64,000 nt of DNA from Verrucomicrobium sp. BvORR106 (GTDB lineage Bacteria; Verrucomicrobiota; Verrucomicrobiia; Verrucomicrobiales; Verrucomicrobiaceae): the NCBI RefSeq assembly GCF_000739655.1, contig NZ_BATR01000075.1:62001-126000 (forward strand), in the 5' to 3' direction. The translations under genes and the position numbers were made by a program. Positions 15,875 to 54,602 of the stretch are shown piece after piece. Positions within the stretch are counted from its first letter, which is position 1. Each line of letters starts with the position of its first letter. A model generated the notes under the pieces. The model searched no databases. It had not been told where the DNA came from and saw only the letters and a program-made list of their open reading frames with translations.

Positions 15875-16030
15875 GACTGTGGGAATGGGGTTGCTATTCG
15901 CTGGTGATGTTGATTCTGTAGCAAAGACTGACAGAGGGCATGCGAGGCGGGCCAGTGGGGCGGCATCAACGCTGCCATGTTATCAACGTTCATCACGAGA
16001 GAGAGAGAGAAATTTGCAAAGTCGTGTCCC

Positions 16031-37839: not shown

Positions 37840-40800
37840 TCATTGTTTCTCCACCGATACATCAGGTGATTCCGGCAGATTCAGGGACTTGCGAACCTCC
37901 TCCAGCGTAATGCGCCGCACTGGAGCGCTCAGGTCAATCTCCTTCATCCGCCCCTCTTTCTGCTCCTTCTCCACATAGTCCACAAACTGCCACACATCCC
38001 CGTTGAACTTCTGCCCCGTCTTCTCCTCCAGCGCCTCCAGCACTGCGCTCAGTAGCGGTCCGGAACAGAACGGGGTCTTGAGGGTGTTGACCAAATGGGG
38101 GGTATCCAACGTAACGCAAGCTTGTCGGAGGAGGGCTTTATTGGGAGGAAAAAAAGTTTCTTGCTTGGGCAAAGTCGAGCTCGTGCGGGACTGAGTCACC
38201 TGTTGCAATAGGAATTCAGTCAAGCTTGGGTTATTTATGGGAGCGGGGCCGTCTGTGGCTAAGTGTAGTAGTGCGTGGGTGCACTTCGGGTAACTTGTGA
38301 GCGAGGGGAGGTCGTGCCTGCTGAGGATATCAAGGGTAACCTTGGTGTTGAGATTCTTTGTCTTTTGAGGGGGAAATATTGCCGATAGAGCCATTGATGA
38401 TTCGGCTATTTCGTGAAGATATTTGGTTGGCGAACTGGAGGCTAGAGATGGCAGGCGTGTTGATAATTTTTGGGTGATTAAATCCGATTGAGAGGCTGCT
38501 ATTGTCGTCAGCTTGATAATGGAATTTACGAAAAAAGCGAGGTCAGAAGGTTCTCCTCGGTTTGTGATTCTTTCAACCTCAGCTTCTAAGGTGCCGATCA
38601 TGCTTCTGGACAATTCAGCCGCTTGACTGGCTTTTACGTGGTCGAGCAGGGAGATGAGTATGCTCGTGTTCCGATAAAGGAAATAGAGTTCGCTAGATGC
38701 ATGTCGCTTCATCCCATCAGCCAGCTTGAGTGACCCGTCGAAAACTGTTTGTTCAGGGAGTTGTGCGGATAGGAGTAGAAGTAGTTCGGATGGAGTCTTT
38801 GGGTGAATTTTTGAGAATCTGTCATCGTAAATTGATAAGTCATCAAGTTGTGGGGTGACGAATTGTGCGATATTTTCAGCCATCTGAGCCGTGTCGTCAG
38901 AATGTGTTTCACCAGAAAGTATTGAGAATGCCTCTATCAAATAGGGGGTGCGGTCGGGTTGTTTTTCATCATTTATTGATCGGTGCAACGACTTGAGGAG
39001 TATGTCATTTTGGAGAGGGAAGTTCGGGTTGGCGCTCAGTTGCTTTAGTGACAAGAGTAAATAGGGTAAGTCGTAATCAGTGCTTGCATTTGGGTATGCT
39101 AGCGTTTCAACTATGTGTGATAGAGTTTTTTGGATTAGGGTGGACGATGAGGCGGATGGTGTCTTGCTGCTAACGTTTGCCACCGTTTCTGCTAGTGCTG
39201 GGACGCGTGAGTGCTTGGTCGGGCGCGAGCAATAGACTGTTGGAATGAGAGGTTCCAAATATGATGTGAGTGAATCGCTAATAGCGGAAGCCTCTGCAGG
39301 CGGTATTTTGTCAAGTGTGAGTGCCAGGGGTCTGCTGATTTTCATCGAGTCCACATAACTGGCACTTCTGAACTGTCGCCCAAGCCGCGTTGCCATATCT
39401 ATGAGGGGCGTGTTGCCGAGTTCATCGTGCGTTTGTGCGATCAAGCTCGCAAGGCGATTTTCGTCAGGCGAGGACACGTATTTATCGAAAGATGTTTGCA
39501 CAAGGTAGTAGAGGGACTTTTGGATTATGTTCAGTTGTTGCTCCTTCGTCAGGCGATCGAATGCCATCTGTAATTTTTCTCTGAACCGTGATTCGTCCGT
39601 TACCGTATGATCCAGGTATCTTTCAATCGCGGAAGCCCATTTGGACGTGTCACTTCTTTGGGTGCCCAGTCCTAATGCGGCGTTCATGCCTGCCCCATGA
39701 TTGTGGAACGGAAATTCAGGATTTTGGTTGAACCAACTATCCATCAATAATTGACGAACGCGCTCATGTGATTTTGGGGTCTCCGCCAGTTCCCATAGTG
39801 TCTCTATTTCAATGTTGGATAGCTTTTCGCTTCTTCCGATGATTCTGAAGTAGGTCTTTGACAAGGCTTCCTGTGCCCTTTGCTCATTCGCCTTGGCAAG
39901 GATCGCAACCTGCTTCGCTGTGCCCATCATGGAATAGGCGATGCTCGCCGCGACAGCGAGGAACAGAATCAGAAACCAGACTCCCGCGCTCTTTAGCCAC
40001 GAGTACTGTACGCAGCGCCTCAAAAACCGCTTCTCCAGCTGGGTCAGCCACAGGGTGGTTGTCTTCTGCCAATTTTGCAGTTGTTTCAAAGGATCCGCCG
40101 TCGTCAACAGCGCCAGATTCAAGGGGTCAGCATCCCATTGCCGGGCTGCATGCGTCAGTCTTCTTAGTTTCGGGATCTCGCCGCGCACGTTCTCGATCCA
40201 TTCCTGAATCGTCGGGCAGTCGGTGATCAACACTTCATGGGTCACCTCCAGAGCCTCGCCATCGGCCACGATCAGGCGGTTCTCAGGATCAGAGAGCACG
40301 TTCTTCACGTGCTCCACTTTATCGGCGTCCACGCCGGCCCACTTCAGTTCCGCCAGGTCCATGCGGCGACGAGAGTCGCTGACACCTTCACCCGGCGTCG
40401 TCAGGCGGATGAAGAGGTTGCGCGCGATGTCCCACTGTAACTTCTCTTCCTTTTCGAGTTTTTCCAGGCTCGCCTCCGCCCGTCCTTGCAGCGTCTTGTC
40501 CACGCCACCCATCTGGGTGTATACCGCGTGGGTCAGGCAACGGCCGGAGCACTCTTTCCACAGGCTCTGCAACGCTACCTGCAGCAGTGGCATGGAGCCC
40601 CGCTGGCGGTACACATCCTCCAGCATCTTCTCCACCAACCCGGCCTCTAGATAGGCACCTGCCCGCTCCGCCGGCCCTTTGATGGCGGAGCGCCAGCCTT
40701 CTTCGTCCAGTTCATCCAGCGTGATCTTAAGGTGGTCCTTCTCCAGCATTTGCCAGAACGCTTCTGATGCGCGACACCGGTCCAGAAAGTCCGATCTCAG

Positions 40801-41913
40801 CGTCAAGACCACGTGCCAGCGCTTGTCCGCCAGCCCGCGGAAGTGCGCCAGCGCCTCCAGTTGGAAGCGAATCTCCGTCTGTCTTTTCTCCTCCGTCACC
40901 CCTGTGGAAGGGGCGTGCGTGAAGATTTCCTCGAACTGATCCACCAGGAGCAGCAGCCTTCGCCGCTCCTCCGGGAAGAACAGACGCAGCTCCGCATCCA
41001 GGTTCACCGCCCACTCCTTCGGAGTCGTCTTCGAGGGTTCCGGAAAAATACGCTTGCGTGCCGCTGCCACCTTGTCCCCGCGCTCCTCAGCAGGCGCCCC
41101 GGCGTACAGTTGCGTCAGCAGCGCACCCAGCAGGTCCCGCCCCGGCTTAACCACGAGCCGCTCCCAATGGGGGAGCTCCTTGCTGGCAGAATTCTGGGCT
41201 GCCCCCACCGTGCCGTCCTTCGAGGGAGCGAGGGACTCCCGTAGCCCCGGCAGATAGCCGCCCTGATGCACTGCCTCCGTCACCAAGCCTGCCCGCGCCA
41301 GGGAGGATTTGCCATTGCCTGATGGGCCCACGATGGCCGCGAAGCGCCAGTCCCTCAGCATCTGGGCCAGTTCCTGGCTCCGCTTCGCCCGGCCAAAGAA
41401 GGAGTCCGCGTTCTCCACATCAAATGCGTCCAAGCCCTGGTACGGGTTCTTCGTCTCCGTGGTCCTGCCCTCCGCACTGTGCTCTCCCAGGATGGCGCGC
41501 TTGATCTGGTGCAACGGGGCTTCGTCATCCGTGATCCCGTTTTTCAGGTCTACCCACAGACGCGTGTCCATGAACCAGCGCAGCTTCGAGCGGTCCGCTC
41601 CAGGAAACAAGACCGGGATGAGTCGGAACTCATCCTTCTCCTGCGAGAGCTTGATCGCACGGTTCAACAGGGAGTTCACCTCCTCTCTCTGCCACGGGCC
41701 CTCCCCCTGCGGGCCGATGCAGATCACCGCCGATTCAGACTGGTCCATCGCCTCACTCAACCGGTCTGTCAGCACATCTCCCGGCAGGAGCACTTGATCA
41801 TCCAGGAAGCAGGAGATGCCGTGCTGCTTCAGCCACCCCTCCAGCGCTCTGACGTAACCCTTGTCCAGCGAGTTGTGGGAGAGGAAGGTCTTGTATTTGA
41901 TCGACTTCGTCAT
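37840..41913 (-). CDS. TIR - nSTAND NTPase - transmembrane - helical sensor protein
   Basis: A 1357-residue protein. TIR at about 5-125 (YKTFLSHNSLDK; W74-x-x-x-E78), nSTAND with NPYQGLDAF, Walker A GPSGNGKSS (196-204) and Walker B LLLLVDQFEEI (320-330), TM at about 640-662. The first 640 residues align almost without gaps with the 8955-12992 protein. After the TM the two differ completely: this one continues with RIIGR, LWELAE and a helical region ending in KFNGDVWQFVDYV, matching the 28904-32872 protein. The C-terminal coding part (about 38090-39900) is much AT-richer than the N-terminal part. ATG 41913 is chosen over 41937 because it matches the start of the homologue. Likely a one-chain version of the split TIR/nSTAND systems. 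Confidence 0.92.
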   Translation of the reverse strand: MTKSIKYKTFLSHNSLDKGYVRALEGWLKQHGISCFLDDQVLLPGDVLTDRLSEAMDQSESAVICIGPQGEGPWQREEVNSLLNRAIKLSQEKDEFRLIPVLFPGADRSKLRWFMDTRLWVDLKNGITDDEAPLHQIKRAILGEHSAEGRTTETKNPYQGLDAFDVENADSFFGRAKRSQELAQMLRDWRFAAIVGPSGNGKSSLARAGLVTEAVHQGGYLPGLRESLAPSKDGTVGAAQNSASKELPHWERLVVKPGRDLLGALLTQLYAGAPAEERGDKVAAARKRIFPEPSKTTPKEWAVNLDAELRLFFPEERRRLLLLVDQFEEIFTHAPSTGVTEEKRQTEIRFQLEALAHFRGLADKRWHVVLTLRSDFLDRCRASEAFWQMLEKDHLKITLDELDEEGWRSAIKGPAERAGAYLEAGLVEKMLEDVYRQRGSMPLLQVALQSLWKECSGRCLTHAVYTQMGGVDKTLQGRAEASLEKLEKEEKLQWDIARNLFIRLTTPGEGVSDSRRRMDLAELKWAGVDADKVEHVKNVLSDPENRLIVADGEALEVTHEVLITDCPTIQEWIENVRGEIPKLRRLTHAARQWDADPLNLALLTTADPLKQLQNWQKTTTLWLTQLEKRFLRRCVQYSWLKSAGVWFLILFLAVAASIAYSMMGTAKQVAILAKANEQRAQEALSKTYFRIIGRSEKLSNIEIETLWELAETPKSHERVRQLLMDSWFNQNPEFPFHNHGAGMNAALGLGTQRSDTSKWASAIERYLDHTVTDESRFREKLQMAFDRLTKEQQLNIIQKSLYYLVQTSFDKYVSSPDENRLASLIAQTHDELGNTPLIDMATRLGRQFRSASYVDSMKISRPLALTLDKIPPAEASAISDSLTSYLEPLIPTVYCSRPTKHSRVPALAETVANVSSKTPSASSSTLIQKTLSHIVETLAYPNASTDYDLPYLLLSLKQLSANPNFPLQNDILLKSLHRSINDEKQPDRTPYLIEAFSILSGETHSDDTAQMAENIAQFVTPQLDDLSIYDDRFSKIHPKTPSELLLLLSAQLPEQTVFDGSLKLADGMKRHASSELYFLYRNTSILISLLDHVKASQAAELSRSMIGTLEAEVERITNRGEPSDLAFFVNSIIKLTTIAASQSDLITQKLSTRLPSLASSSPTKYLHEIAESSMALSAIFPPQKTKNLNTKVTLDILSRHDLPSLTSYPKCTHALLHLATDGPAPINNPSLTEFLLQQVTQSRTSSTLPKQETFFPPNKALLRQACVTLDTPHLVNTLKTPFCSGPLLSAVLEALEEKTGQKFNGDVWQFVDYVEKEQKEGRMKEIDLSAPVRRITLEEVRKSLNLPESPDVSVEKQ

Positions 41914-42426
41914 GGGCGGATGCTCAAACCGTATCATAGCCTCTCTGGAAAAACAGGGTATTATGACCCGTCTCTGGTTTCAGGCCGCGCTGGACCTTCG
42001 AAGTGATGGCGCTCGATTCGACTTTCCGGGCATTTTCCTTGGCTGTGTAACGGAGCCAAAGCTGCAACGGAGCGATTGATGGGGCCATCTAGTAGTAAAC
42101 AACAAGGGGTGGAGCAAGAAATTTGATGCAGAGGGTTGTGTTTGAGGGTGTTGGCATGGTGAGGGGGGCTGGGGGTGGTTCAGCGGGGCTGACATCTTGT
42201 GCGTCGTTTCCGGAGGAGGCTGCAACCGGAGGGGGGCGGGTGCGGGAGGCGAGCGGCCTGTGTGTCAGGAATGACACCAGGAAGATGTGGGGCGTACCCA
42301 TTAAGGTGTATATGTAAAAGTTACATGCAAGTGTGTGCTAATGTTAAATAATATAATAGAAAAACTATTGGACGTGGGGCGTATCGAATATTGATTGGCT
42401 GTTCGAGCCTTTATTGGAATTCGTCC
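41914..42426. other. Divergent intergenic region before the DUF4062 operon
   Basis: About 500 bp, with no supported gene. A perfect hairpin GTGTCA-GGAA-TGACAC lies at 42262-42277. The last 130 bp are AT-rich and include TATAAT at 42352-42357, which could be the -10 box for the operon starting at 42427; a good -35 at standard spacing is not evident. Confidence 0.4.
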
Positions 42427-42948
42427 ATGAACTCTGTGTTTATCAGCGCCACGACGAAGGGGTTTGCAGAGCTCCGGAAGCAGATCGCAATGATCCTGAA
42501 GCATCAGCGGATTGAAGTGCTTGAGCAGGAGCATTTTACTCCGGCGTCCAAGATCGTGCAGCGCGAGATCGAAGAGCAGATCTCGCGGGCGGACGGCGTG
42601 TTGTTTCTGGTGGGGCCGTACTACGGATATCCCATGCAGGATGTTCAGCCTGATCTGGCCCGCCGGCATTCCTACACCCAGTACGAGTGGCATCTGGCCA
42701 AGCGGTGGGGGAAGCGCTCGCTCACGTATCTCATTGAGGACAAGTTTTTTCCTAGCGTGGAGAGCGAGCCGGAGCCCGGAAGGGAGGGGCGCTTCCCTGA
42801 CGAGGGGAAGTTCACGGAGTGGCAGCGCAGCTTCTGGGATGAGGTCAGGGCAGGCTCCAAATCATCCGCCCGGGTCACGGTCTCGTCTGAACTGCAACTG
42901 GCGTACGAACTTGCGAAAGTGAACTGGAGGGAATGGTTGAATGGCTGA
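42427..42948 (+). CDS. DUF4062-family (TIR-like fold) protein, first gene of six-gene operon
   Basis: A 173-residue protein from ATG 42427; the frame is open 12 codons further up, but MNSVFISAT is the usual beginning of this family. The DUF4062 pattern is present: NSVFISATTKGFAELRKQI at the N-terminus, REIEEQISRADGVLFLVGPYYG, and SYTQYEWHLA. DUF4062 is related to TIR/SEFIR-like domains and usually fronts STAND or TPR proteins; here it is stand-alone. The stop overlaps the next gene by 8 bp (its ATG at 42941 precedes this TGA), which indicates translational coupling. Enzymatic activity is unknown. Confidence 0.8.
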   Translation: MNSVFISATTKGFAELRKQIAMILKHQRIEVLEQEHFTPASKIVQREIEEQISRADGVLFLVGPYYGYPMQDVQPDLARRHSYTQYEWHLAKRWGKRSLTYLIEDKFFPSVESEPEPGREGRFPDEGKFTEWQRSFWDEVRAGSKSSARVTVSSELQLAYELAKVNWREWLNG

Positions 42949-45139
42949 AGATCCATCGATATCGGGATTGGCTGCAGCTGCGGGCGCTCAAGCTCCCGGT
43001 GCGGGAGCAAATGGAGGTAATGTGGGCGGCGGAGGCGGCAGTCATGCTGCGGCGGGCGTTGGCTCGTCCGGTGGAGCCGACCCTGAGGAGAACAGTGCCA
43101 ATCCCACTGGCAAAAAAGGGGCTTCCCATGACGAGGATCGGGCGGATGCCACGCGGGACCGGTTCGATGAGTTTCTTTCAGACAGCAATCGGGTGACTCG
43201 TCCCCTGGGGGTGCGGTGCAACATTCCGGAGTTTGACCGGTGGGTCAATGACTTCGGGAAGGTGCGGCAACTGGCTATTTCAGGCAACGACTGGGACTCC
43301 TGTCTGTGGAGCGCCTCTGAGATCGCCCTGCGCAACAGTACTTTTGCCCATATTTTCATCTGTGAGCCGGTGACGGTGGGGATCAACATTGAGAAGCTGC
43401 AGGAGCGTTTGCGGAGGTTTGATGCCGAACCGGTATGCATTATCTGGAAGTTTCTCGATCAGATTCACGCGAAAACCTTTGCCGATTGGTTTAGGTCGTT
43501 GGTCAAGGTGGCAGAAGGTCTGGAGCGAACGCCGCATGCGCTGATCTTGTGTGTGCATCAGAAGGGATGTGTCTCGCTGGTGAATGAGAACCGGTGGGCC
43601 TACTTCCACCGCCTGGACCTGCTGGGGCTGGGTGTGGAGCAGCAGGTGGACATGGAGCAGGCAGGGCGGGACAAGCTGGAAGACCTCGTCGGCGGAAGTG
43701 CCGAGAGCCTGGAGAGTCTCCTGACATCTGATGAGAAGATGCATGTTCCGCGGACTCTGGCGCGGCTGGTGGTGCTCTTTCAGGGGCTGGCAGCATCCAG
43801 TGTGGAGATGCTGCTGCAGGGGGCGCTGCGGGAGCGCATGATTGAGGTGACGCCCGCCACGGAGAAGGTGGAGGCGAAGCGGATCAATGCTGGGGAGCTC
43901 TGGCGCAAAGGGCGAGGAATGTTTGAGAAGCAAGCTGGCGTGGGCCGGGGTGGGGCAGATGGTCAGGCGCCTTACAAGTTCGAGTCCACCGCCTATGCAG
44001 AGCGGATCACTGAGTGGGTGTGGAGCTACCCTGAGGAGTTGTTTGAGCTGTTGCTGACGATCTGCAAGGATCGGCCGATTTACTTCGGGGACGTGACGAG
44101 TGAGGCGGAGCGCAATACGTACTGGGAGTTCGCCTCCACGGCTTCGATGATTGCGGTGCAGGCGCCGGGGCTCTTCGCCATGAGATGGCGGGAGTTGATG
44201 GAGAGCGACCTGAGATCGTGGCTGGAGAAACAGTCGGGCGTGCAGGTGGCGAAGGAGGATCTCCTGGGAATGCTGGTCCTCATTGATCAAGCGCACGAGT
44301 TCACCCGGTACTGGTGGCGGAGTGCGGTGAGGCTGGGAGATCTATGTGGACGCCTGACAGTGGCCAAAGCTGGACGCGTGGCGGAGGATTTTATTTACCA
44401 GATGCTGGCGCGCGGGCTGCATGCCATGGCGTTTGAAGTGGTGGTGGCGATGGAGGAGAGCTGCAGTGAGGAGAACCGGTTGAAGTGGTTTTCCCGCATC
44501 ATCAATGAGGGCAAGGCGAGTGTGCGGGAGTTCGTGACACGGCGGATGGCCCGCATCGTTTCTGAGCAGGAGGGGCTGGCCCCTGTGTACCTGCAGATAG
44601 CCGACAAGTGGCTGACGGAGGCTGAGCGTCGCCAGATGCAACCGGTGAGGAAGGTGGCTTTGGCACTGCCAGCGCTGGTGCTGGACAACGTGACGGGCAG
44701 CGTGTTTGACGCGACCAAGGAGGAGTCTCCGTTGCTAAACGTCCTGAACTTGGAGATGAGCGCCGAAGTGACGGCGCTGGATCTCTGCCGCAAGGCGATG
44801 ACGGATGAGGATTTTTCCTCGGCGGCGGCGCCGTTTCATAACATGGACTATCTCAGGGAGATCCATCAGCAGGCCTTTGCCGTGGCTCTGGCTGGCTATC
44901 AGTTGGGGGCGGGATTGCCTGACAGCCGACGCACCATGGCGTTGGATCTGTTCTCCCAGATACTGGAGGGTTTCACGCTGGATGATCGCATCCGTGTGAG
45001 CCAGTGGCTGGACCGGTTTTCCAATCACTGGCTGGAAGAGATGGACAGGGCTGCGGTGGCGCTCGGAGACCGCGCTGTGGCCAGGCAGGCTGAGGCGTTG
45101 CGCCTCTACACGGTGTGTCAGGATCTCCTGGGGTGCTAA
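42941..45139 (+). CDS. Large protein of unknown function in the DUF4062 operon
   Basis: A 732-residue protein. It opens with a Gly/Ala/Ser-rich low-complexity stretch (about 8-55), then a possible alpha/beta domain (about 90-250, containing HIFICEPV, VCIIWKFLDQ and HALILCVHQKG), then mostly helical sequence to the end. No Walker motifs, TM segment or catalytic signature were found. The alpha/beta part could be an inactive nucleotide-binding or TIR-like module; this is a guess. It is coupled to the DUF4062 gene by an 8-bp overlap and followed after 14 bp by the next gene, so it is clearly an operon member. Probably cytoplasmic. Confidence 0.75.
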   Translation: MAEDPSISGLAAAAGAQAPGAGANGGNVGGGGGSHAAAGVGSSGGADPEENSANPTGKKGASHDEDRADATRDRFDEFLSDSNRVTRPLGVRCNIPEFDRWVNDFGKVRQLAISGNDWDSCLWSASEIALRNSTFAHIFICEPVTVGINIEKLQERLRRFDAEPVCIIWKFLDQIHAKTFADWFRSLVKVAEGLERTPHALILCVHQKGCVSLVNENRWAYFHRLDLLGLGVEQQVDMEQAGRDKLEDLVGGSAESLESLLTSDEKMHVPRTLARLVVLFQGLAASSVEMLLQGALRERMIEVTPATEKVEAKRINAGELWRKGRGMFEKQAGVGRGGADGQAPYKFESTAYAERITEWVWSYPEELFELLLTICKDRPIYFGDVTSEAERNTYWEFASTASMIAVQAPGLFAMRWRELMESDLRSWLEKQSGVQVAKEDLLGMLVLIDQAHEFTRYWWRSAVRLGDLCGRLTVAKAGRVAEDFIYQMLARGLHAMAFEVVVAMEESCSEENRLKWFSRIINEGKASVREFVTRRMARIVSEQEGLAPVYLQIADKWLTEAERRQMQPVRKVALALPALVLDNVTGSVFDATKEESPLLNVLNLEMSAEVTALDLCRKAMTDEDFSSAAAPFHNMDYLREIHQQAFAVALAGYQLGAGLPDSRRTMALDLFSQILEGFTLDDRIRVSQWLDRFSNHWLEEMDRAAVALGDRAVARQAEALRLYTVCQDLLGC

Positions 45140-45153
45140 AAATTTTCTATATC

Positions 45154-46386
45154 ATGCAAAATCATCCGCAGATTCAGTTGGTGAAAAGAGGCAGGGAGAG
45201 GCAGGAAACGTTTGGGGAAAGGCGCATCAACTACTCGCCGCCCGCACAGTCGTTTCTGGGGGAGATGCTGCCCAGGGGGTTGGCGAAGGAGCCTTTTGTG
45301 GTGCCGGTGGGCCGACTGGCAGTTCCGGTCGACATGGATGGCACGCCCCTGACGATCTCCAACCGCGAGACGGGTGAGGTGTCCACGGTATACCCGAGGA
45401 TCCGCATCGTGGAGGTGGATGGGGAGACGGGTGCGGAGAGGCTGATCGCTGCGCTGTACAAGCGATTGGATGATCAACTACCTGCCATTCGGGAGAGACT
45501 GGACGGCATCTTCCGTCGATATTTTACCCAGGGGGCGACCTTTGAGTCGATCGAAAAGGTGGCGACCCAGCACCAAGCGCCCAGTGAGCTTCTGGACCGT
45601 ATCTCTCATGATCTGGGGTTGAAGATTGAGTGGTCGATGAATCCAGAGCCCACCACGTCCAACTGGATCCGGACGCTCGTGGGGGCGACCCACCCGCCAG
45701 TGTCGGACAGCCTTGTCTTCAACGAGGAGTTCGAGGAGACAGCGCTGACGCTGACCTTCTCCGTTTCGATTGAGAAGGTGCACCTGCCCAACATCGTGGT
45801 GGCGGAGCGGCGTGCCCGACAGAATTCTGATGCGGGGACGGAGGTGAAGCGGATCTTTGAGCGGGTGCGGGAGATGACGAAGTCTGCCTTCCGTGCGGTG
45901 GTGACCGGGGTGGATGTCTGGAACCGCGAATTGATCCGCGAGCTGGCGCATGATGGATTTGCCTCGGTGGTGAGCTCGAAGATCGCCCGCGAATTTGGTT
46001 ACGTAGTCAAGTTTGGGGACTTCGGTGTGGAGCTGAACCAGGCCCTGGTAAAGTCGATCAAAAGCGGATCGCTGGCAGAGATGTATGACGCCCGGATGGA
46101 TCTGGCCAAGAAAACCTACCTGGCGCTGGCAGACAAGCGGGCGCAGTTGATTGCCGCGGGTTCCTTCCCGGCTGCACAGCGGCTGGACGAGTCTCTTGCC
46201 AAGGCGGAGGAGGAGGTGAAGAAGCTGGCGCAGACACGGGTTGACTCCAACAACCATGTCACTGAGAGGCTGGGTGAATCGAAGGTGGGGCAGAACCAGG
46301 ACGTGCACGAGAAGTTCATCCGGGCACTGCAGCTTGAGGAGAACGCAGAATCGCAACGCAAGTACGGCCGGTCGGCGAGGAATTAG
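45154..46386 (+). CDS. Unrecognised operon protein with long C-terminal helices (SPFH-like?)
   Basis: A 410-residue protein from ATG 45154, which lies 14 bp after the previous stop; the in-frame start at 45115 would overlap the previous gene. The central part (about 200-300) has a strand-helix-strand run (TLTFSVSIEKV, VWNRELIREL, EFGYVVKFGDFGVEL) with faint similarity to band-7/SPFH domains. It is followed by about 100 residues of charged coiled-coil helix (AKAEEEVKKLAQ). No TM is seen. The SPFH resemblance is weak and unsupported by alignment. The gene is 7 bp before the zinc-ribbon membrane protein gene. Confidence 0.7.
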   Translation: MQNHPQIQLVKRGRERQETFGERRINYSPPAQSFLGEMLPRGLAKEPFVVPVGRLAVPVDMDGTPLTISNRETGEVSTVYPRIRIVEVDGETGAERLIAALYKRLDDQLPAIRERLDGIFRRYFTQGATFESIEKVATQHQAPSELLDRISHDLGLKIEWSMNPEPTTSNWIRTLVGATHPPVSDSLVFNEEFEETALTLTFSVSIEKVHLPNIVVAERRARQNSDAGTEVKRIFERVREMTKSAFRAVVTGVDVWNRELIRELAHDGFASVVSSKIAREFGYVVKFGDFGVELNQALVKSIKSGSLAEMYDARMDLAKKTYLALADKRAQLIAAGSFPAAQRLDESLAKAEEEVKKLAQTRVDSNNHVTERLGESKVGQNQDVHEKFIRALQLEENAESQRKYGRSARN

Positions 46387-46393
46387 TTGAGCC

Positions 46394-47218
46394 ATGAAGA
46401 CGCGGTCGTTCATCTGTGACAACCAGCAGTGTTTCCGGTATTCGAAGAGCAAGCAGTCAAAGTTGACGAAGGGCTTCTCGTGCGACTGGGAAGGCTGTCT
46501 GGGCATGGCGATCATGGAGGGGCGGGTGGAGCCCGAGCCGGTGCCCTTCTGGAAGGATCATGTTTTTTTGAGCAAGGCGGCGCTGGGGCTGCTGGCGGCT
46601 TTCATCGCTGCCATGCTCTTGCACGCCTACTGGCCACGGCAGCAGGCAGAGCAGGTTGACATAGGAGGGCGGCGGGAGAAGCTGGAGGAGCCGGTGCCGC
46701 CGGTGCCGCCGGTCCCTGATGAGGTGATCCAGAAGGAGGTGGCACAACTGATGACGCTGGCCTACGAGCTCCGGAGGATCAATGCTGCCGTGGCCTCCCT
46801 GAAAAGGCAGGAAAAGGGGGCGCTGGAAGGGGCCAGTGGCATAACGAGCGCGCGACGCGACGCCGACGGGGTGCTGAAAGAAACGCGCCGGCGAGTGGAG
46901 GATGCGCAGACTTTTCAGGCGGTGGGGCAAGGGCACGAAGGCAGGGCCATGTCCAAGGCGGTGGCTTACTTTGAGAAGTTGGGGGAGGTGGCAAAACTGC
47001 CCCCCGGGCGTGTCGAGACGCTGATCGGCGCACACGTGGACACCAATGAAAAGAAGGCGCGGCTGGAGCCAAACGCAGCTGTGCAGGACCTCAAGATTGA
47101 CTCCTTCCAGTGGAAGTTCGGGGTGTCACTCCTGGTCCGGGAGCATGTGGACAGTTTCAAGGCCGGGGTGGCTGTCACTCTGGAACAAGTGATTCAAGAC
47201 TACAGAAAGGGTGCCTGA
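46394..47218 (+). CDS. Zinc-ribbon, single-TM, coiled-coil protein
   Basis: A 274-residue protein. Residues 1-40 contain two CxxxxC pairs (C8/C13 and C30/C35), a likely zinc ribbon on the cytoplasmic side. One hydrophobic span lies at about 58-79, then a proline-rich hinge (EPVPPVPPVP) and a helical extracytoplasmic part (about 110-274). The type II topology would link cytoplasmic operon proteins with the two lipoproteins encoded next. Its TGA overlaps the ATG of the lipoprotein gene (TGATG at 47216-47220). Function unknown; an envelope adaptor is inferred from topology and position. Confidence 0.75.
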   Translation: MKTRSFICDNQQCFRYSKSKQSKLTKGFSCDWEGCLGMAIMEGRVEPEPVPFWKDHVFLSKAALGLLAAFIAAMLLHAYWPRQQAEQVDIGGRREKLEEPVPPVPPVPDEVIQKEVAQLMTLAYELRRINAAVASLKRQEKGALEGASGITSARRDADGVLKETRRRVEDAQTFQAVGQGHEGRAMSKAVAYFEKLGEVAKLPPGRVETLIGAHVDTNEKKARLEPNAAVQDLKIDSFQWKFGVSLLVREHVDSFKAGVAVTLEQVIQDYRKGA

Positions 47219-47685
47219 TGACCAGACTCAAACTCCATGCTCTCTGTGCCGGCGGCAGTCTCATCCAGCTGCTGACCGTCGTGGCTCTTGTAACGAGCCT
47301 TGCTTCCTGTGCCACCAGCAATCCTTATGAGGACAGTCTCTTCTTCTCTGGCTCCCTGGCTGAGCAAGAGCGGCTGAACCCGCGGCGGCAGGCGCTGCGA
47401 GAGGCGAACTACGCCAGGGCAGGTGAGGAGGAGGATACGCGCTACCTTTCTGAAGAGCTGGGGAGTGCACGGCGCATCAGCTACAACCAGCAGGTGGAGC
47501 TAAACTGGCTCCGAGATGAGATCCGCAGGAAGCGGAGGGAGCTGGATGATCTAAACGATGAGATTCACGAAGTTCAGAACGGGGCGCGAGGGGATCTGCG
47601 GGCTCTCGAGGAGCAGCGCAGGGATCTGGAGGATGAGCTGGATGAGCTTCGCGACAGGTATCAGGAAGTGATGAAAGCAGAGTAA
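47218..47685 (+). CDS. Coiled-coil lipoprotein
   Basis: A 155-residue protein. A signal sequence ends in the lipobox LASC (Cys at about 31), predicting lipidation. The mature part is almost entirely charged coiled coil (RRKRRELDDLNDEIHEVQN and LEEQRRDLEDELDEL). The start overlaps the previous stop. Such lipoproteins often act as periplasmic spacers or tethers. The partner is presumably the preceding membrane protein or the next lipoprotein. Confidence 0.8.
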   Translation: MTRLKLHALCAGGSLIQLLTVVALVTSLASCATSNPYEDSLFFSGSLAEQERLNPRRQALREANYARAGEEEDTRYLSEELGSARRISYNQQVELNWLRDEIRRKRRELDDLNDEIHEVQNGARGDLRALEEQRRDLEDELDELRDRYQEVMKAE

Positions 47686-47698
47686 CTGAATCAACCTC

Positions 47699-48409
47699 AT
47701 GGCAACGATGAAGATGTGTATGCAAGGTGTCATTCGCCCGCTAGGTCTTTGTTTGGTGCTGCTCATGGCGTCATGTGCAGCACCGACCGGACCCGGACCC
47801 TCAAAGGTGCGTCAGGCGCGGAGGGACTTTGAAAACCGGACCCAGCTGAAAACGACCAACACCCTCATCCAGGGCACGGTGGGAGGGGCTGTCATCGGTG
47901 CAGCGCTGGGCGCGGTGGTGGGGGGGCACTCTGGAGGGCGTGGATACAACAAGAACGGAGCCTGGGCTGGCGGGGTGATCGGAGGCTTGGGCGGGGCTAT
48001 GGCGGGCAACCAGTATGCGCAGGCCAAGGTGGCGGAGCGGAGACGCTACGCGGCCATGGAAGAGAATCTCAACAACGCGATCGCCAATTCCCGGAGTGCG
48101 AACGCGAGGGCATCGAGGTTCAACGCGGTGTTGAGAGCGCAATTGCGAACGACGAAGGCGGATTCACGGGAGCGGGCGGCTATGATCGCCGATGCCCGTG
48201 CGGTGGTGGCGGGTCTGGATCGTGACATCCGGAACCAGAAGCAGGCTCTGGCGCAGGCGAGACAGCTCCGGAGAAACTCCAGTGACGCGAATGACCTAAG
48301 AGATGAGATCGGTGAACTGGAGCGAGAGAAAAGAGCTCTGCAGCGGGAGATATCAAGGTGGACGCCGGCTGACCCGGATGGGGTGCGCCCGAGCGGGACG
48401 AGACTCTGA
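47699..48409 (+). CDS. Glycine-zipper lipoprotein with coiled coil
   Basis: A 236-residue protein. The lipobox is MASC after a hydrophobic signal (residues 1-25). A glycine-zipper segment follows at about 55-105 (GGAVIGAALGAVVGG, then GVIGGLGGAMAG), of the type in 17-kDa antigen-like outer-membrane lipoproteins that insert into or span membranes. The C-terminal half is coiled coil (LRDEIGELEREKRALQREI). It begins 13 bp after the previous lipoprotein gene and is the last gene of the six-gene operon. A membrane-inserting or pore-lining role is possible; no direct evidence. Confidence 0.8.
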   Translation: MATMKMCMQGVIRPLGLCLVLLMASCAAPTGPGPSKVRQARRDFENRTQLKTTNTLIQGTVGGAVIGAALGAVVGGHSGGRGYNKNGAWAGGVIGGLGGAMAGNQYAQAKVAERRRYAAMEENLNNAIANSRSANARASRFNAVLRAQLRTTKADSRERAAMIADARAVVAGLDRDIRNQKQALAQARQLRRNSSDANDLRDEIGELEREKRALQREISRWTPADPDGVRPSGTRL

Positions 48410-48445
48410 CCGGGCGTTCACATAGGAGGCTGGTCCCAGCTATGG

Positions 48446-48490
48446 CCTGCCTCGTGCCCGATTCTGAAAGGTGATGGGGCACGTGGCAGG
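48446..48490. terminator. Strong hairpin between convergent genes
   Basis: The arms 48446-48460 and 48476-48490 pair at 13 of 15 positions around a 15-base loop. It lies 36 bp after the end of the six-gene operon and about 78 bp from the convergent stop at 48568, so it is a probable bidirectional terminator, though it lacks a U-tract. Confidence 0.5.
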
Positions 48491-48567
48491 TGAGCGGTGT
48501 AATGCGGGAGATGTGCTTCTGGGGGACTGTGAAAAAGTCCCGCTGTCGGTGTCTGGAGTGCTTTTGC

Positions 48568-51393
48568 TCAAGGAGCCGGGGGGATGGGCTGGATGCGGCG
48601 GGTGCGGCGCATGACGACCCACTCGGCATTTTCCGTGAGGGCTTCTTGTCCCAGGGAGAGGAGCAGTTCCTGGATGTCGTGCACGAGGGATTCAGGGGTG
48701 ACTGCGCCTGCTGGCAGGGGCTGGGCAGGGGCAGGGGCAGGAGCGGGTGCGGGAGCGGGGGTGGCGAGGCTGGCCCTCAGCGCATTGAGCTTCTGGGTGA
48801 GGCGGGTGTTGGCTCCTCGAAAGAGGCTCTGGGTGGCGGCATAGCGTCGCACATTTTCCGCATGAGTGTGGTGCTGGATCCACCCCACGGCCAGACCACT
48901 GGCGCCCAGGAGAAAGGATTTCCAGAACCCGGAGAGTTCCGGGGTGCAGACGGCGGCGGGCAGTCCGGCACACTGCATGGGAAGGGCGCTGAGGAGGAGG
49001 GTGAGACCGAGGCCGAACCCGATGGCGCTGATGAGATGAAGCGCCTGGGCGAGATGCTCCCGCCGGGCCTCTGTCGCCAGCAGGCGGCCGAGGGGCTGCA
49101 TGATGAGGCGCGGCCGGGCGCTCCCGGTGGCCAGTGCCTGCAGGAGCCGGGGGTCATCCAGCCAGAGGCTGGGGAAGAAGATCCGCCAGGGGTGGTGCCT
49201 GGTGGAGGAGCGGGCTTCGTCGGCCTTCATGGCGGGGGTTCTGAGTGAGCGTTCGATGAGCCAACACAGGAATGGAACGCCAAGAAAGAGCAAGGCGCCG
49301 CCGAGGCAGGGAGGGCTGGAGTGCAGAAGGGTCTGGGGCAGGTCGGACGGAGGGACCTGGTGGCTCGCGGCGAGGCTGCTGTAGAGGGAGACCAGCGCCA
49401 TGAGGAAGGCGGCAACGAACAGGGCGAGGCTGAGCGCTCCGAAGGACTCGAGCTGGCGGCGCTGGTTCTTCACGGCATTGTCGAAGTAGCGGATCTGGCC
49501 TTCCACCCACCCTTTCTGCACGGCTTCCAGGAGGAGGAGTTGCTCTGGGAGGGGGCGCTGGAGGAACCACTCCCGGGTGCGCAGATAGGGGAAGGTGACG
49601 CTGCTGATGACGCAGCGGACCCAGCCCAGCTCCCCGCGCAGGCGCTGGATGTAGCGGCTGGCCACGGCGGAGAAGAGCCCGGCTGCGGACCAGTAGGACT
49701 GGACCCGCATGCCCTCGGCGATGGCGCGATAGTCGAACTGGCGGTCCTCGATCTCGCGTGGTGTGGGCACTTTCCTGTTGAGGATGAACTCCAGCCAGCC
49801 GGTGCTGCCGATGCCCTTGTGCAACAGGCAGGCTACGATGAAACAACCGGTGGCGATGACAAAGGCGGCCAGTCGCAGCAGGGCTTCGTGAGGGGCGAGG
49901 GAGGGGAAGTTCGTGAAGGCGGTGGTGGAGATGACGAAACAGAGCAGGGAGAGGATGGCGAGTGCGCCGATGATGCGGTGCAGGGTGGTGGCCCAGCCGC
50001 CCCATTGCTTGCTGATGCTGGCGGTGAGGTCCCGCAGCTGGGCGTAGGCGCCAAAGGGGAAGGTGGGGCAGGCAAGGGTGGCGGCAATGGCTGGCTCAAA
50101 ACGGGCATTGGCCTGAGTGGCCCTGCTGCTGCCGCTGAAGAGCTGGCGCAAGGAGTCCCGGGAGGGCTGGGGAGGGGTGTCCGGGGCCGACAGGAGCTTG
50201 TGATAGGCGGTCAGGTTTCTCGCCAGTGCCAGGAGCAGGCGGTGCCCGCTCTCCTGCCAGCGGGGATGGTGGTTGGGTGGGTTCGATGAAATGGGGATGT
50301 CCTCTGGAAGGGCGTCGAACGGCTGGAGGAACTGGAGAGGGCGGGTGCAGGGGAGGGCGGTGGCCACGGTGGCTGGGGCCAGTTTCTTCTCCCGATCGAG
50401 CGGGAGATGCAGGACGGGGCCTGTGTCTGCCCAGGCGATGATGTTGGGGATGGGCAGCAGGCCGTCTGAGAGGCCGCGGCGCTTGGCCAGGGCGATGACG
50501 GCACTGCCGGGACTCTGAAAGGAGACGAGATCTTCCTCGGTGGCGCGGTCATGCTCCTCATCATATGCGGCGAGTAGGATGTCGCTGTAAGCTGCGATGT
50601 ACTCGCCAGCAGCGCGGAAGCGAATGTACCGGCGGGTGAATTTCTCCGGCGACTCGGTTTTGGCGTCGAGGTCTACGGCGGGATCCCCAGTGGGATTGAG
50701 CAAGGGGTCGGTGCGAACGCTGTCGTGAAGGGGAACGCAAAAGAGATCCCGCTCCTGGCAGTACCCGGGCTGGGCCTGGATCATCCCGACGAGGTGCTGG
50801 AAGCGACGCCGGGGGGCGTCCGAAAGGGCGCAGGGATTCTGGTGAGGTGTGCAGGGGCCGAAGGTGGAGGACTGCAGGTACACTGCCTCCGGGAAGGGGA
50901 GTGGGGCGCGGACGGTGATGTCTGCCTCCGGGTGCCATTTCTTGTAGGCGAATGCGGCCTCGACCACGAGGGTGTCAATGCCGGGGGCGAGGGAGCTGAG
51001 AATGACAACGGGAGTGGAGCCCAGGCCGAGGGGCTGCCAGCAGCTGTGGTAGGTGCCTGCTGTGTCCGGCTGAGTGGGGACCAAGGGGTGAAATCTGCGC
51101 GTCTGGGGATCGAGCCGGCCCGGAGGAAGCTCGGGAGCGGAGGTGTGAGTGAGCCAGTCCAGAATGCCAAAGACGGACTCATAGATGGCCTGGATGGCGG
51201 GATGCAGATCTGGCCCGGCGACTGGTCCGTCTGGCGAGTAAGTGGGAGGCCAGTGCACGTAGCCCACCGGGTCTGTATTTCCTGTAACGCCAAGGATGAA
51301 TGCGGGGCGCAGGGGAAAGTCGTTGATCAGGGCGGGTGGGGCAGGCGGTGCTGGCAAAGGGGGGGCTGCAGCAGGGGAGTCTTGTGCGGACAT
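48568..51393 (-). CDS. SLOG-like sensor fused to a multi-TM domain
   Basis: A 941-residue protein from ATG 51393; a GTG 10 codons upstream is also in frame. The N-terminal region (about 30-220) has a Rossmann-like pattern resembling SLOG domains, which bind nucleotide-derived ligands: FILGVTGNTDPVG, then VVILSSLAPGIDTLVVEAAF and RAPLPFPEAVY. From about residue 460 there are some six hydrophobic spans, and YRAIAEGMRVQSYWSAAG is typical of SLATT/DUF4231-like membrane effectors. SLOG fused to a TM effector is a known bacterial conflict architecture in which the nucleotide signal opens a pore. The low-complexity Pro/Ala tail near the C-terminus is notable. Convergent with the lipoprotein operon. 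Assignment is by motif reading only. Confidence 0.7.
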   Translation of the reverse strand: MSAQDSPAAAPPLPAPPAPPALINDFPLRPAFILGVTGNTDPVGYVHWPPTYSPDGPVAGPDLHPAIQAIYESVFGILDWLTHTSAPELPPGRLDPQTRRFHPLVPTQPDTAGTYHSCWQPLGLGSTPVVILSSLAPGIDTLVVEAAFAYKKWHPEADITVRAPLPFPEAVYLQSSTFGPCTPHQNPCALSDAPRRRFQHLVGMIQAQPGYCQERDLFCVPLHDSVRTDPLLNPTGDPAVDLDAKTESPEKFTRRYIRFRAAGEYIAAYSDILLAAYDEEHDRATEEDLVSFQSPGSAVIALAKRRGLSDGLLPIPNIIAWADTGPVLHLPLDREKKLAPATVATALPCTRPLQFLQPFDALPEDIPISSNPPNHHPRWQESGHRLLLALARNLTAYHKLLSAPDTPPQPSRDSLRQLFSGSSRATQANARFEPAIAATLACPTFPFGAYAQLRDLTASISKQWGGWATTLHRIIGALAILSLLCFVISTTAFTNFPSLAPHEALLRLAAFVIATGCFIVACLLHKGIGSTGWLEFILNRKVPTPREIEDRQFDYRAIAEGMRVQSYWSAAGLFSAVASRYIQRLRGELGWVRCVISSVTFPYLRTREWFLQRPLPEQLLLLEAVQKGWVEGQIRYFDNAVKNQRRQLESFGALSLALFVAAFLMALVSLYSSLAASHQVPPSDLPQTLLHSSPPCLGGALLFLGVPFLCWLIERSLRTPAMKADEARSSTRHHPWRIFFPSLWLDDPRLLQALATGSARPRLIMQPLGRLLATEARREHLAQALHLISAIGFGLGLTLLLSALPMQCAGLPAAVCTPELSGFWKSFLLGASGLAVGWIQHHTHAENVRRYAATQSLFRGANTRLTQKLNALRASLATPAPAPAPAPAPAQPLPAGAVTPESLVHDIQELLLSLGQEALTENAEWVVMRRTRRIQPIPPAP

Positions 51394-51596
51394 GGGCAAT
51401 GGGGAAAGTTCCACGCAGGACACGTGCCATACGGGGATTTTGGTCTATGAGTTGTTGAGTTCAGCATACGTCACCTGCCAACACTCCGTTCCGCAAAATT
51501 TTAGACACCGTAGTTCGTTCTTGCTGAGAGGGTGTTGCTGGAGCGGCGGTGCGGTGATGGTTGCGTGAGGGTGTGGTTTGTGCAAAAAATGATGTA

Positions 51597-54500: not shown

Positions 54501-54602
54501 AGCTTGAAGCGGGGTGGCATGAGCGACTCTGAGGCGGAGGAGAAGACGAGACAGGTGGAGGCTGAGGCTCTGGCCACGGCGGGAAGGCAGGTGTCCCGCT
54601 GA
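51597..54602 (+). CDS. DUF4062 - transmembrane - TPR protein
   Basis: A 1001-residue protein from ATG 51597; an in-frame start at 51561 would add 12 residues. DUF4062 at about 6-110 (PRIFVSAVSADLRSTK, EVLRRTIKDCDAVIHIAG, SYTQMEVDLARK). A TM span lies at about 175-193. The rest is a long TPR array (about 315-930), with repeats such as AKQFYEDALKLADREA, YEEAERRYKAAVED and EAELYARQALLRA. The layout parallels the TIR-TM-TPR protein at 762-2555, with DUF4062 in place of TIR. The stop is 19 bp from the convergent 54622 stop. Signalling function is inferred from architecture only. Confidence 0.88.
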   Translation: MKTRAPRIFVSAVSADLRSTKMAVAKTLRRMDCLPKVHDEFPLEHGPVPEVLRRTIKDCDAVIHIAGLRYGFEPSRREDGESRRSYTQMEVDLARKLKKPLYLFLCDEAYPYDPPRPVDPEREEEVLQELQKRHRLAVERDGKSREKVTSYLQLENHVLTLGPKLEKLRDRHGWVRWAVCLLLVLAVALGLYQQHLAREGQVLSGAYATDLASLAYDVSERMAGLACENDPVGGEDLLEKALDELTQEHNEPPGKLRKKLDVWAQRVATSWRADPCELVIRDYLTGQYASVTSRGVKLVESLKAEANRATYFSTKKQDQLLRPLLVTGDALFSVGDLGKAKQFYEDALKLADREAEPGRWARIVNRLVAVTQWMGKWDEAENWQRSVVALLKVGKGNNSTELAEQCANLAEVLSARLSRERRNALTEQEIESLLQEAERMIVANERHPLVRASDLLKIAKVRIGLRTESSQRSKAKRLLETALVDVDGHMLARYALKATVRLELGGLEADDNHVDRALQLLTDAADLFRQAGRNYELGVIMALQRQAGLLESLGRNEEAGKLYETCLAQADAHLGKTSYMGVQARIQIGSYFLRKGQTQLALKFAEHAVEICRDQGHLQGNWVLVDALHQLGNVLEAMGRDDAAMKHFEEALEVIARGEGMVGATGYYEICTAQFLERKGRYEEAERRYKAAVEDQTTLKGADHEDVLNAELCLSVFLGGQNRPEEAEGIVRRVLNVQELRFGRDSLVLIYTLTDLSRILQHRGLNNEARMGLDRVLSLAEKHYGKANVALLPQLEETAEFCQVTGDWLALERTCRRALELLDPAPVARDYVVSWTSRLGYARYQRNGWVEAELYARQALLRAADVSGQDSQSAAIPKVLLAISLARQDRLRESATLAKAAAAILDRPTALMDSVWGGGVEQVAWALDGSREQSCSTELFGKVFEWSLKGWNAMEERPAGNYRSQYLASLKRGGMSDSEAEEKTRQVEAEALATAGRQVSR

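What the first reader, a model, noticed from the sequence alone, without database searches (positions are those of the whole stretch)
42427..48409. Six-gene operon linking a TIR-like protein to the cell envelope
DUF4062, a 732-residue unknown protein, a 410-residue unknown protein, a zinc-ribbon single-TM protein and two lipoproteins are spaced by −8, 14, 7, −1 and 13 bp. The order goes from cytoplasm to membrane to lipid anchors, one with a glycine zipper. DUF4062 normally sits at the front of a single receptor; here it is free and paired with envelope parts. This looks like a complete, possibly undescribed, trans-envelope apparatus.
Basis: partly seen in the sequence, partly recalled or inferred. 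Interest (0 to 1): 0.85.

Follow-up and report, generated by a model that had tools for sequence, protein, structure and literature searches.

The report
Envelope-linked DUF4062 NADase defence operon
Six adjacent bacterial genes, found in the same order in a second bacterium, look like a rare defence device that joins a predicted NAD-destroying enzyme to parts anchored in the cell's outer layers.

Summary
In detail: six same-strand ORFs with spacings -8, 14, 7, -1 and 13. The unit is real. All six genes recur in order, 26-41% identical, in one other Verrucomicrobiaceae genome (L005), behind a ThsB-type TIR gene and a weakly SLATT-like four-TM gene. It is rare: relatives of genes 2 and 3 were found in 2 of 68 family genomes (one weak fragment dropped).

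Gene 1 is a DUF4062 domain, recently reported to be a TIR-like NADase (Swarozyc; human TEP1 in the vault; PMC13174449); the probable catalytic Glu, E87, is kept. Gene 2 has a STAND/AAA+-like predicted fold without a Walker A motif. Gene 3 resembles a flotillin-type SPFH domain plus coiled coil, but only on a poor model. Genes 4-6 are a zinc-ribbon single-TM protein and two lipoproteins. The convergent SLOG-SLATT-like gene at 48568-51423 probably belongs: its homologue sits beside the same lipoprotein pair in a third genome.

Best reading: a split DUF4062/pseudo-STAND defence system tied to the envelope. Families, synteny and motifs are shown; sensing, assembly, NADase activity and antiphage action are inferred. 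The lipoproteins are not private to it. New variant of a known kind.

The parts
42427..42948 (+). Gene 1: stand-alone DUF4062 (TIR-like) domain, 173 aa; putative catalytic Glu E87 (codon 42685-42687)
   Evidence: Pfam DUF4062 9e-10, over cut-off; 38% identical orthologue P0011; E87 is one of 7 invariant columns in 7 hand-picked DUF4062 domains; DUF4062 NADase activity reported in PMC13174449
42941..45139 (+). Gene 2: 732 aa, disordered N-terminus (1-95), P-loop-less AAA+/STAND-like domain (about 93-230 plus a lid/winged-helix-like part), all-helical C-terminal array
   Evidence: Model pLDDT 57; Foldseek SAMD9 5.2e-6, Avs4 2.6e-3; VIA AAA+ Z 11.6 over 129 residues, AVAST5 filament Z 10.8 over 326 residues with rmsd 19.3; no Walker A in either orthologue; 26% identical orthologue
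45154..46386 (+). Gene 3: 410 aa soluble protein, tentative SPFH/flotillin-like domain (183-290) followed by long coiled coil (304-378)
   Evidence: Poor model, pLDDT 42; VIA flotillin 9l3g_A Z 8.4, rmsd 3.8, 98 residues, 183-290; Foldseek 1win Band 7, E 0.85; profile tests negative; 40% identical orthologue
46394..47218 (+). Gene 4: 274 aa zinc-ribbon-like (Cx4C...Cx4C) protein with one TM segment at 57-75, Pro-rich linker and C-terminal part
   Evidence: Four Cys invariant in orthologue P0014; one TM in both
47218..47685 (+). Gene 5: lipoprotein A, 155 aa, lipobox LASC at 28-31, coiled-coil-like
   Evidence: 29% identical orthologue in G309; relative in G348 beside lipoprotein B
47699..48409 (+). 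Gene 6: lipoprotein B, 236 aa, MASC at 23-26, glycine zipper about 58-105, coiled-coil-like
   Evidence: 41% identical orthologue over two Pfam glycine-zipper cut-offs; relatives in 17 of 68 family genomes, own included
48568..51423 (-). Probable seventh component: 951 aa, SLOG-like N-terminal domain, several TM segments and SLATT-type C-terminus (ORF from GTG; an ATG lies 10 codons in), convergent with gene 6
   Evidence: Full-length homologue in G348 lies divergent from the same lipoprotein A-B pair; two of three remoter relatives scanned carry sub-threshold SLATT_3, YAcAr SLOG or DUF4231 matches; shared C-terminal motif in five members
37840..41937 (-). Neighbour, divergent: TIR-nSTAND1 protein (context; not claimed as a part)
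   Evidence: nSTAND1 3.7e-86, TIR_2 1.4e-16

Best explanation
The genes encode a rare defence-type (conflict) system in which a DUF4062 NADase is carried as a separate subunit, paired with a P-loop-less STAND/AAA+-like scaffold or sensor (gene 2), and tied to the envelope by a coiled-coil, possibly SPFH-like assembly protein (gene 3), a zinc-ribbon inner-membrane protein (gene 4) and two lipoproteins (genes 5, 6). Proposed sequence of events: the membrane and lipoprotein parts, or the helical array of gene 2, sense infection or envelope damage; genes 2 and 3 cluster the DUF4062 subunits; clustering switches on NAD+ hydrolysis; the cell stops or dies, and a SLOG-SLATT-like membrane protein (48568-51423) may respond to the nucleotide product and open the membrane. 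Shown here: gene order conservation, DUF4062 family and Glu conservation, lack of Walker A, predicted membrane features, neighbourhood of the SLATT-like gene. Inferred: sensing, clustering, NADase activity of this copy, envelope assembly, antiphage action.
For: Six-gene synteny at 26-41% identity in a second genus of the family. Patchy: not found in the other three genomes of the own genus, one of them 76% complete. The window is a TIR/nSTAND island: of 29 window proteins scanned with Pfam, TIR_2 passes its cut-off in 9, nSTAND1 in 4 and DUF4062 in 2, and a GmrSD protein is present. DUF4062 domains are NADases that cause abortive infection and need a Glu (PMC13174449); E87 is invariant in the 7 domains aligned. 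Gene 2's model is matched by STAND and AAA+ proteins, including Avs4, Apaf-1 and AVAST5. In G309 a ThsB-type TIR (PF08937, 1e-6, over cut-off) and a four-TM protein head the same run, the latter 32 bp before DUF4062. The SLOG-SLATT-like gene is next to the lipoprotein pair in two genomes in different arrangements.
Against: Only two copies of the six-gene unit are known, so alignments are shallow and models weak (pLDDT 57 and 42). Foldseek's matches to gene 2 have low TM-scores (0.10-0.18 by query length in the 50 rows shown) and include unrelated large helical proteins, such as a nuclear pore chain at 1.5e-4. P0008 has no detectable homologue in G309 at 1e-10, P0008 and P0010 show no significant similarity, and P0010's SLATT likeness is one sub-threshold DUF4231 match (E 0.041). 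Lipoprotein B relatives occur beside an FHA-ABC transporter and apparent kinases. PADLOC and NCBIfam give no match to genes 1-4. No + strand promoter-like site was found in 40500-50000. E87 was not aligned to KpSwz itself.
Confidence: 0.45

Rival explanations
1. The six genes are an envelope stress or homeostasis device, not antiphage: DUF4062 is a non-catalytic adaptor and the SPFH-like protein with lipoproteins organises a membrane microdomain.
For: Lipoprotein B relatives sit beside an FHA-ABC transporter (Pfam on one copy) and apparent Ser/Thr kinases in several genomes; SPFH proteins are general membrane organisers (established knowledge; PMC13347060 passages).
Against: Rare and patchy distribution (2 of 68 family genomes), TIR/STAND island, conserved E87, ThsB-TIR at the head of the G309 run.
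Confidence: 0.2
2. Two separate modules happen to abut: a three-gene cytoplasmic DUF4062 system (genes 1-3) and a mobile envelope module (genes 4-6, or 5-6) that is combined with many partners.
For: Genes 5-6 relatives occur without genes 1-4 in G348 and gene-6 relatives in other settings; zinc-ribbon-TM-like proteins (by eye) and lipoprotein pairs also flank a tubulin-like gene in G331.
Against: All six keep order with short spacings at low identity in G000 and G309; genes 4 and 5 overlap by 1 bp in the window. In G348 the lipoprotein pair is again beside DUF4062 genes.
Confidence: 0.2
3. The system is a second-messenger circuit of Thoeris type: DUF4062 (or ThsB-TIR) makes an ADP-ribose-derived signal read by the SLOG-like domain of the neighbouring SLATT-like protein, which is the real effector; the lipoproteins anchor or regulate the pore.
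For: SLATT was predicted to be a nucleotide-responsive pore and co-occurs with TIR effectors (PMC7159879 passages); P0008 or its homologue is next to the lipoprotein pair in G000 and G348, and a four-TM, weakly SLATT-like protein is in the G309 run.
Against: P0008 is on the opposite strand; the G309 protein is not demonstrably related to it; TEP1's domain was reported to make no ADP-ribose derivatives beyond ADP-ribose.
Confidence: 0.15

Closest known systems
Swarozyc (DUF4062 antiphage NADase, KpSwz; PMC13174449)
   Same: DUF4062 domain; conserved Glu; location among defence-type genes
   Different: Swarozyc proteins carry DUF4062 and a winged-helix auxiliary domain in one chain; here DUF4062 is alone and linked to a pseudo-STAND protein and envelope parts
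TEP1 in the RNA vault (DUF4062-NACHT-helical-WD40 inside an MVP shell; PMC13174449)
   Same: Set of parts: DUF4062, STAND-like protein, and tentatively an SPFH-like plus coiled-coil protein (the MVP shoulder is SPFH-homologous, PMC13347060 passages)
   Different: Separate genes; no Walker A; predicted membrane anchoring; the SPFH match rests on a poor model, and likeness to MVP itself was not tested
STAND proteins (Avs4, AVAST5, Apaf-1, SAMD9)
   Same: Predicted fold and domain order of gene 2
   Different: No Walker A in either orthologue; effector on a separate chain
SLOG-SLATT and Thoeris-type TIR systems
   Same: P0008 family has SLOG-like and SLATT-type signatures; ThsB_TIR in G309
   Different: Six extra genes and a lipoprotein pair; no Pfam family match for P0008 over cut-off; no ThsA-type partner recognised among the genes read
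NTP-dependent conflict systems of Kaur et al. 2020 (PMC7159879; passages read)
   Same: Use of zinc ribbons, TM parts, tubulin-like proteins and SLATT/TIR effectors
   Different: No MoxR, vWA or GTPase domain found in genes 1-6 or P0008; DUF4062 does not occur in the main text held

Membership tests
DUF4062 / TIR-like NADase | Match to PF13271 over its cut-off | tested here: met
   39.1 bits against 24.7; orthologue 44.1
DUF4062 / TIR-like NADase | Conserved catalytic Glu | tested here: met
   E87 invariant in 7 hand-picked aligned domains; equivalence to KpSwz E97 is inferred, not aligned
DUF4062 / TIR-like NADase | NAD+ hydrolysis | not testable with these tools
   needs enzyme assay
Swarozyc | DUF4062 fused to a winged-helix auxiliary domain | tested here: not met
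   gene 1 is 173 aa, with the Pfam domain ending at residue 91 and no second domain detected
Swarozyc | Activation by a phage portal protein; abortive infection | not testable with these tools
   needs phage and biochemical assays
STAND NTPase | STAND/AAA+ fold | tested here: inconclusive
   fold matches on a pLDDT 57 model; no Pfam match
STAND NTPase | Walker A P-loop | tested here: not met
   no [AG]x4GK[ST] in P0002 or P0012
SPFH / flotillin | Band_7 sequence profile | tested here: inconclusive
   no Pfam Band_7 match; hhalign to own-genome SPFH proteins 0.2-1.0%, on a two-row profile
SPFH / flotillin | SPFH fold plus coiled coil | tested here: inconclusive
   flotillin Z 8.4 over 98 residues on a pLDDT 42 model; Foldseek E 0.85
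Bacterial lipoproteins | Signal peptide with lipobox Cys | tested here: met
   LASC and MASC in genes 5 and 6, ITSC and LASC in the orthologues; MASC is slightly atypical, and the pattern used was a loose one of my own
SLOG-SLATT (P0008) | Pfam SLATT or SLOG match over cut-off | tested here: not met
   P0008: SLATT_1 E 0.14 only; relatives: L045 SLATT_3 0.0076 and YAcAr 0.039, L044 DUF4231 3.8e-4, L043 none, all below cut-off; so described only as SLOG/SLATT-like

The most novel reading that the evidence does not exclude
A bacterial, membrane-tethered counterpart of the vault NADase: a DUF4062 enzyme and a STAND-like protein housed by an SPFH-type (MVP-shoulder-like) coiled-coil assembly that is bolted through the envelope by a zinc-ribbon TM protein and glycine-zipper lipoproteins, with a SLATT-type pore as second effector. 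It would mean that the TEP1-vault partnership of DUF4062, STAND and SPFH parts has an operonic parallel in bacteria.
Probability: 0.15. Interest if true: 0.9.

Novelty: new variant of a known kind. Interest (0 to 1): 0.62.

Why it matters
A 2026 preprint (PMC13174449) links DUF4062 to NAD+ depletion, phage defence and the vault. A conserved operon that splits DUF4062 from a STAND-like partner and adds coiled-coil and envelope proteins would give a genetically simple way to ask how such an enzyme is held off and clustered, and whether defence NADases can be wired to sensing at the cell surface. If gene 3 proves to be SPFH-like, the operon would also offer a bacterial model for the unexplained pairing of a DUF4062 NADase with a vault-type shell.

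Tried and rejected
Wider searches for gene 3: P0003 in 288 phylum genomes, 1 hit, itself; A3 in 387 phylum genomes, 3 hits at E 0.01, of which two (0.006 and 0.008) are short fragments, one with stops, dropped as chance; A3 in 68 family genomes, 3 hits, the third (E 0.0011, residues 320-401) dropped as coiled-coil chance; A3 in 326 order genomes, 2 hits. These samples overlap, and the rows of the phylum searches do not list G309 as a hit. Genome contigs: none with P0003, one with A3; that locus, L006, is identical to L005 over the 17,721 bases they share, so it is not a third copy. Viral contigs (P0003, A3, A2) and plasmids (P0003, P0002, P0008): none. P0002 and A2: 2 of 68, 1 of 387.

SPFH by sequence: hhalign of A3 against five own-genome SPFH proteins gave 0.4% (the sixth, L049, was dropped because no ORF was found in frame). 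In one search halves of gene 3 were scored against six SPFH pieces and 250 decoy chunks: SPFH pieces came at ranks 7 to 206 of 256, and the best match of the second half was a decoy (43%, a chunk of a helical protein in L029). L049 was there read on the wrong strand, so one of the six pieces, and one row of the SPFH alignment, was not SPFH. Two tandem SPFH-like repeats were not supported (0.4%). PDB sequence searches gave nothing useful.

'Lipoproteins prove a private apparatus' was rejected: gene-6 relatives are in 17 of 68 genomes. 'P0010 is the same family as P0008' was not supported. Zinc-ribbon likeness of two L028 proteins to gene 4 is by eye only; BLAST at 1e-3 showed none.
Full report
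OBSERVATION. Six + strand ORFs at the stated coordinates have the stated lengths and spacings. Pfam finds DUF4062 in gene 1 (9e-10, over cut-off; TIR_2 4.3e-5, under its cut-off), nothing in genes 2 and 3, and nothing over cut-off in genes 4-6. NCBIfam and PADLOC give no match for genes 1-4 and only weak matches, mostly to coiled-coil or glycine-zipper families, for genes 5 and 6. A simple scan of 40500-50000 found no + strand sigma-70-like site; its two + strand terminator-like sites lie inside genes 2 and 3, and the numbers found do not exceed shuffles clearly. The intergenic stretch upstream, 489 bp, separates gene 1 from a divergent TIR-nSTAND1 gene.

CONSERVED UNIT. A protein search of 68 family genomes with gene 2 found one relative besides itself, in G309 (E 7.4e-60). 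The surrounding stretch, L005, holds all six genes in order on one strand. Identities over MAFFT alignments are 38, 26, 40, 26, 29 and 41% for genes 1 to 6; BLAST E-values in a small set are 1.7e-29, 9.7e-61, 9.7e-96, 4.8e-10, 1.4e-6 and 6.5e-20. Spacings in G309 are -4, 22, 9, 9 and 14 (from coordinates; the -4 uses the ATG at L005:9951). Two genes precede DUF4062 in the same run: a 128-aa protein with ThsB_TIR over its cut-off (1e-6) and a 367-aa protein with four predicted TM segments and one sub-threshold DUF4231 match (E 0.041), spaced 40 and 32 bp. L005 is identical over 17,721 shared bases to L006, from JAEUHK010000024.1, titled as a Verrucomicrobiaceae MAG, and G309 is of the same family as the window's genome, so the family is Verrucomicrobiaceae. 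The unit is rare: 2 of 68 family genomes for gene 2 and, discounting one weak fragment, for gene 3; 2 of 326 order genomes for gene 3; 1 of 387 phylum genomes for gene 2. The samples overlap. It was not found in the three other genomes of the own genus, one of them 76% complete.

GENE 1. Seven DUF4062 domains that I picked from the window and related loci align with seven invariant columns, S7, L24, G67, S82, T84, E87 and A91. The 2026 preprint PMC13174449 (abstract, Results, Discussion and figure legends read) reports that DUF4062 domains are TIR-like NADases with a conserved catalytic Glu, that a bacterial member (Swarozyc, KpSwz) is activated by a phage portal protein and causes abortive infection, and that human TEP1 is an active NADase in the vault. 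I infer that E87 is the catalytic Glu. DUF4062 proteins are common in this family (29 of 68 genomes, 70 rows), mostly in long frames. Nine rows have frames under 230 aa: four run off contig ends (L053, L055, L057, L058), one is split by a stop (G301), one has a separate TPR-looking ORF behind it (L054), one is followed by an overlapping 477-aa gene (L056), and two are the operons described here.

GENE 2. The AlphaFold2 model from a two-row alignment has pLDDT 57. Residues 1-95 are low-confidence and mostly without structure, 98-215 alternate helices and strands, then come a lid and a winged-helix-like part, and 350-731 is helical. Foldseek ranks human SAMD9 first (5.2e-6), with Avs4 at 2.6e-3 and Apaf-1 at 3.4e-2, and many AAA+ proteins; the TM-scores are low (at most 0.18 by query length in the 50 rows shown), and unrelated large helical proteins also rank, such as a nuclear pore chain at 1.5e-4. 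VIA aligns residues 93-230 with a clamp-loader chain, 1jqj_D (Z 11.6, rmsd 2.9, 129 residues; the delta subunit, as I recall), with NSF and p97 close behind, residues 75-691 with the AVAST5 filament (Z 10.8, rmsd 19.3, 326 residues) and 87-642 with EfAvs5 (Z 10.5, rmsd 18.8, 327 residues). The AAA+ domain match is the firmer one. Neither orthologue has a Walker A motif. I read gene 2 as a P-loop-less STAND/AAA+-like scaffold or sensor. DUF4062 beside a STAND domain in one chain is known (TEP1, NWD1, NWD2, NPHP3; L023_941 here has DUF4062, NB-ARC and TPR), so the operon looks like a split receptor.

GENE 3. I noted an SPFH-like pattern in the sequence before any fold search. The model is poor (pLDDT 42). 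Of the 50 VIA rows shown, 49 match the long helix around 304-378; the remaining one, flotillin 9l3g_A, matches 183-290 (Z 8.4, rmsd 3.8, 98 residues). Foldseek lists the flotillin-2 Band 7 domain at rank 30, E 0.85, behind many ferritins. Sequence-profile tests were negative. The MVP shoulder is homologous to SPFH (PMC13347060, passages). SPFH remains a lead.

GENES 4-6. Gene 4 keeps four Cys in two Cx4C pairs and one TM. Its orientation, zinc ribbon inside, is inferred; flank charges do not decide it. Genes 5 and 6 have lipoboxes in both species, with Ala after the Cys in both window copies (outer-membrane sorting by the E. coli rule, recalled). Gene 6 relatives occur in 17 of 68 genomes, own and G309 included. 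Of the 15 others I fetched stretches from nine, plus a second one of G348 and a second copy in G000, and read them; six genomes (G217, G297, G325, G344, G345, G346) were not read. In L024-L027 the gene is beside a roughly 970-aa protein; Pfam on the L024 copy shows FHA, ABC_tran and ABC2_membrane, while the other copies, those in L030 and L031, and the kinases were judged by eye. In L028 (G331) two lipoprotein pairs lie near a Tubulin_2 protein (3.4e-58) and two proteins that look like zinc-ribbon-TM proteins.

SEVENTH GENE. P0008 (48568-51423, minus strand) has a full-length homologue in G348 (36% over 955 aa, 1.7e-140) that lies divergent from homologues of genes 5 and 6 (34% and 40%). DUF4062 fusion genes lie on both sides of that group. 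Five family members share the C-terminal G-x-E-A-L-x-E-N-x-x-W motif and a D-x-R-x-x-A-E-x-x-R-V motif. Sub-threshold SLATT, SLOG and DUF4231 matches in two of three relatives scanned, and a RyR-domain neighbour in L045, fit SLOG-SLATT systems (recalled). Kaur et al. [quoted passage not shown] G217 has a partial homologue at a contig end, so its neighbour is unknown; G190, G291 and G330 have remoter relatives, and by eye their fetched stretches, short for G291, show no lipoprotein pair among ORFs of 90 aa or more. The G309 locus has no P0008 homologue at 1e-10.

MECHANISM. Step 1, sensing through genes 2 or 4-6: inferred. Step 2, clustering by genes 2 and 3: inferred from predicted fold and coiled coil. 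Step 3, NAD+ hydrolysis by gene 1: inferred from family and E87. Step 4, optional pore response by P0008 or P0010: inferred. The defence setting is supported by the island: of 29 window proteins scanned, TIR_2 is over cut-off in nine, including two Roc-COR-TIR proteins, nSTAND1 in four, DUF4062 in two, and there is a GmrSD protein.

NOVELTY. Paper searches for DUF4062 (9 papers), SLATT with SLOG and lipoprotein (2), STAND NTPase with flotillin and TIR (0), SPFH with anti-phage (1), Verrucomicrobia with TIR domain, STAND and conflict system (2), and Swarozyc (0) listed no paper on such an operon by title or abstract. Only the papers named above were opened, the library holds open papers only, and an accented spelling may hide Swarozyc. 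I call it a new variant of a known kind: DUF4062/STAND-type defence with an envelope module.

Noticed in passing
window 762-61526: The window is a dense TIR/STAND island: TIR-nSTAND1 (8955-13022, 37840-41937), nSTAND1 (21885-25682, 28901-32872), TIR-WD40 (15977-19177), TIR with pentapeptide repeats (19191-20567), other TIR genes, and a DUF4062-TPR fusion (51561-54602).
   Followed up: partly
window 55886-58963 and 59049-61526: Divergent pair of Roc-COR-TIR proteins, 42% identical over 587 aa, one with N-terminal LRRs.
   Followed up: no
window 34097-35932: GmrSD-type restriction protein next to a DUF429 gene.
   Followed up: no
L024, L025, L026, L027, L030, L031: Glycine-zipper lipoprotein beside a FHA-domain ABC transporter-like protein (Pfam run on L024 only, others by eye), with apparent Ser/Thr kinases in L024-L027: a recurring Verrucomicrobiaceae neighbourhood.
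   Followed up: partly
L028:1377-10873: Two tandem lipoprotein pairs, zinc-ribbon-TM-like proteins (one with ankyrin repeats) and a Tubulin_2 protein in divergent runs.
   Followed up: partly
L056:3158-5229: Stand-alone DUF4062 (213 aa) overlapping by 4 bp the start of a 477-aa gene that looks AlbA/Schlafen-like by eye.
   Followed up: no
L057:2034-2540: Another glycine-zipper-like lipoprotein (by eye) about 1.6 kb from a DUF4062 match at the contig start (G323).
   Followed up: no
L045:7442-9712: SLOG/SLATT-like protein followed by a RyR-domain gene (PF02026, 1.6e-16).
   Followed up: no
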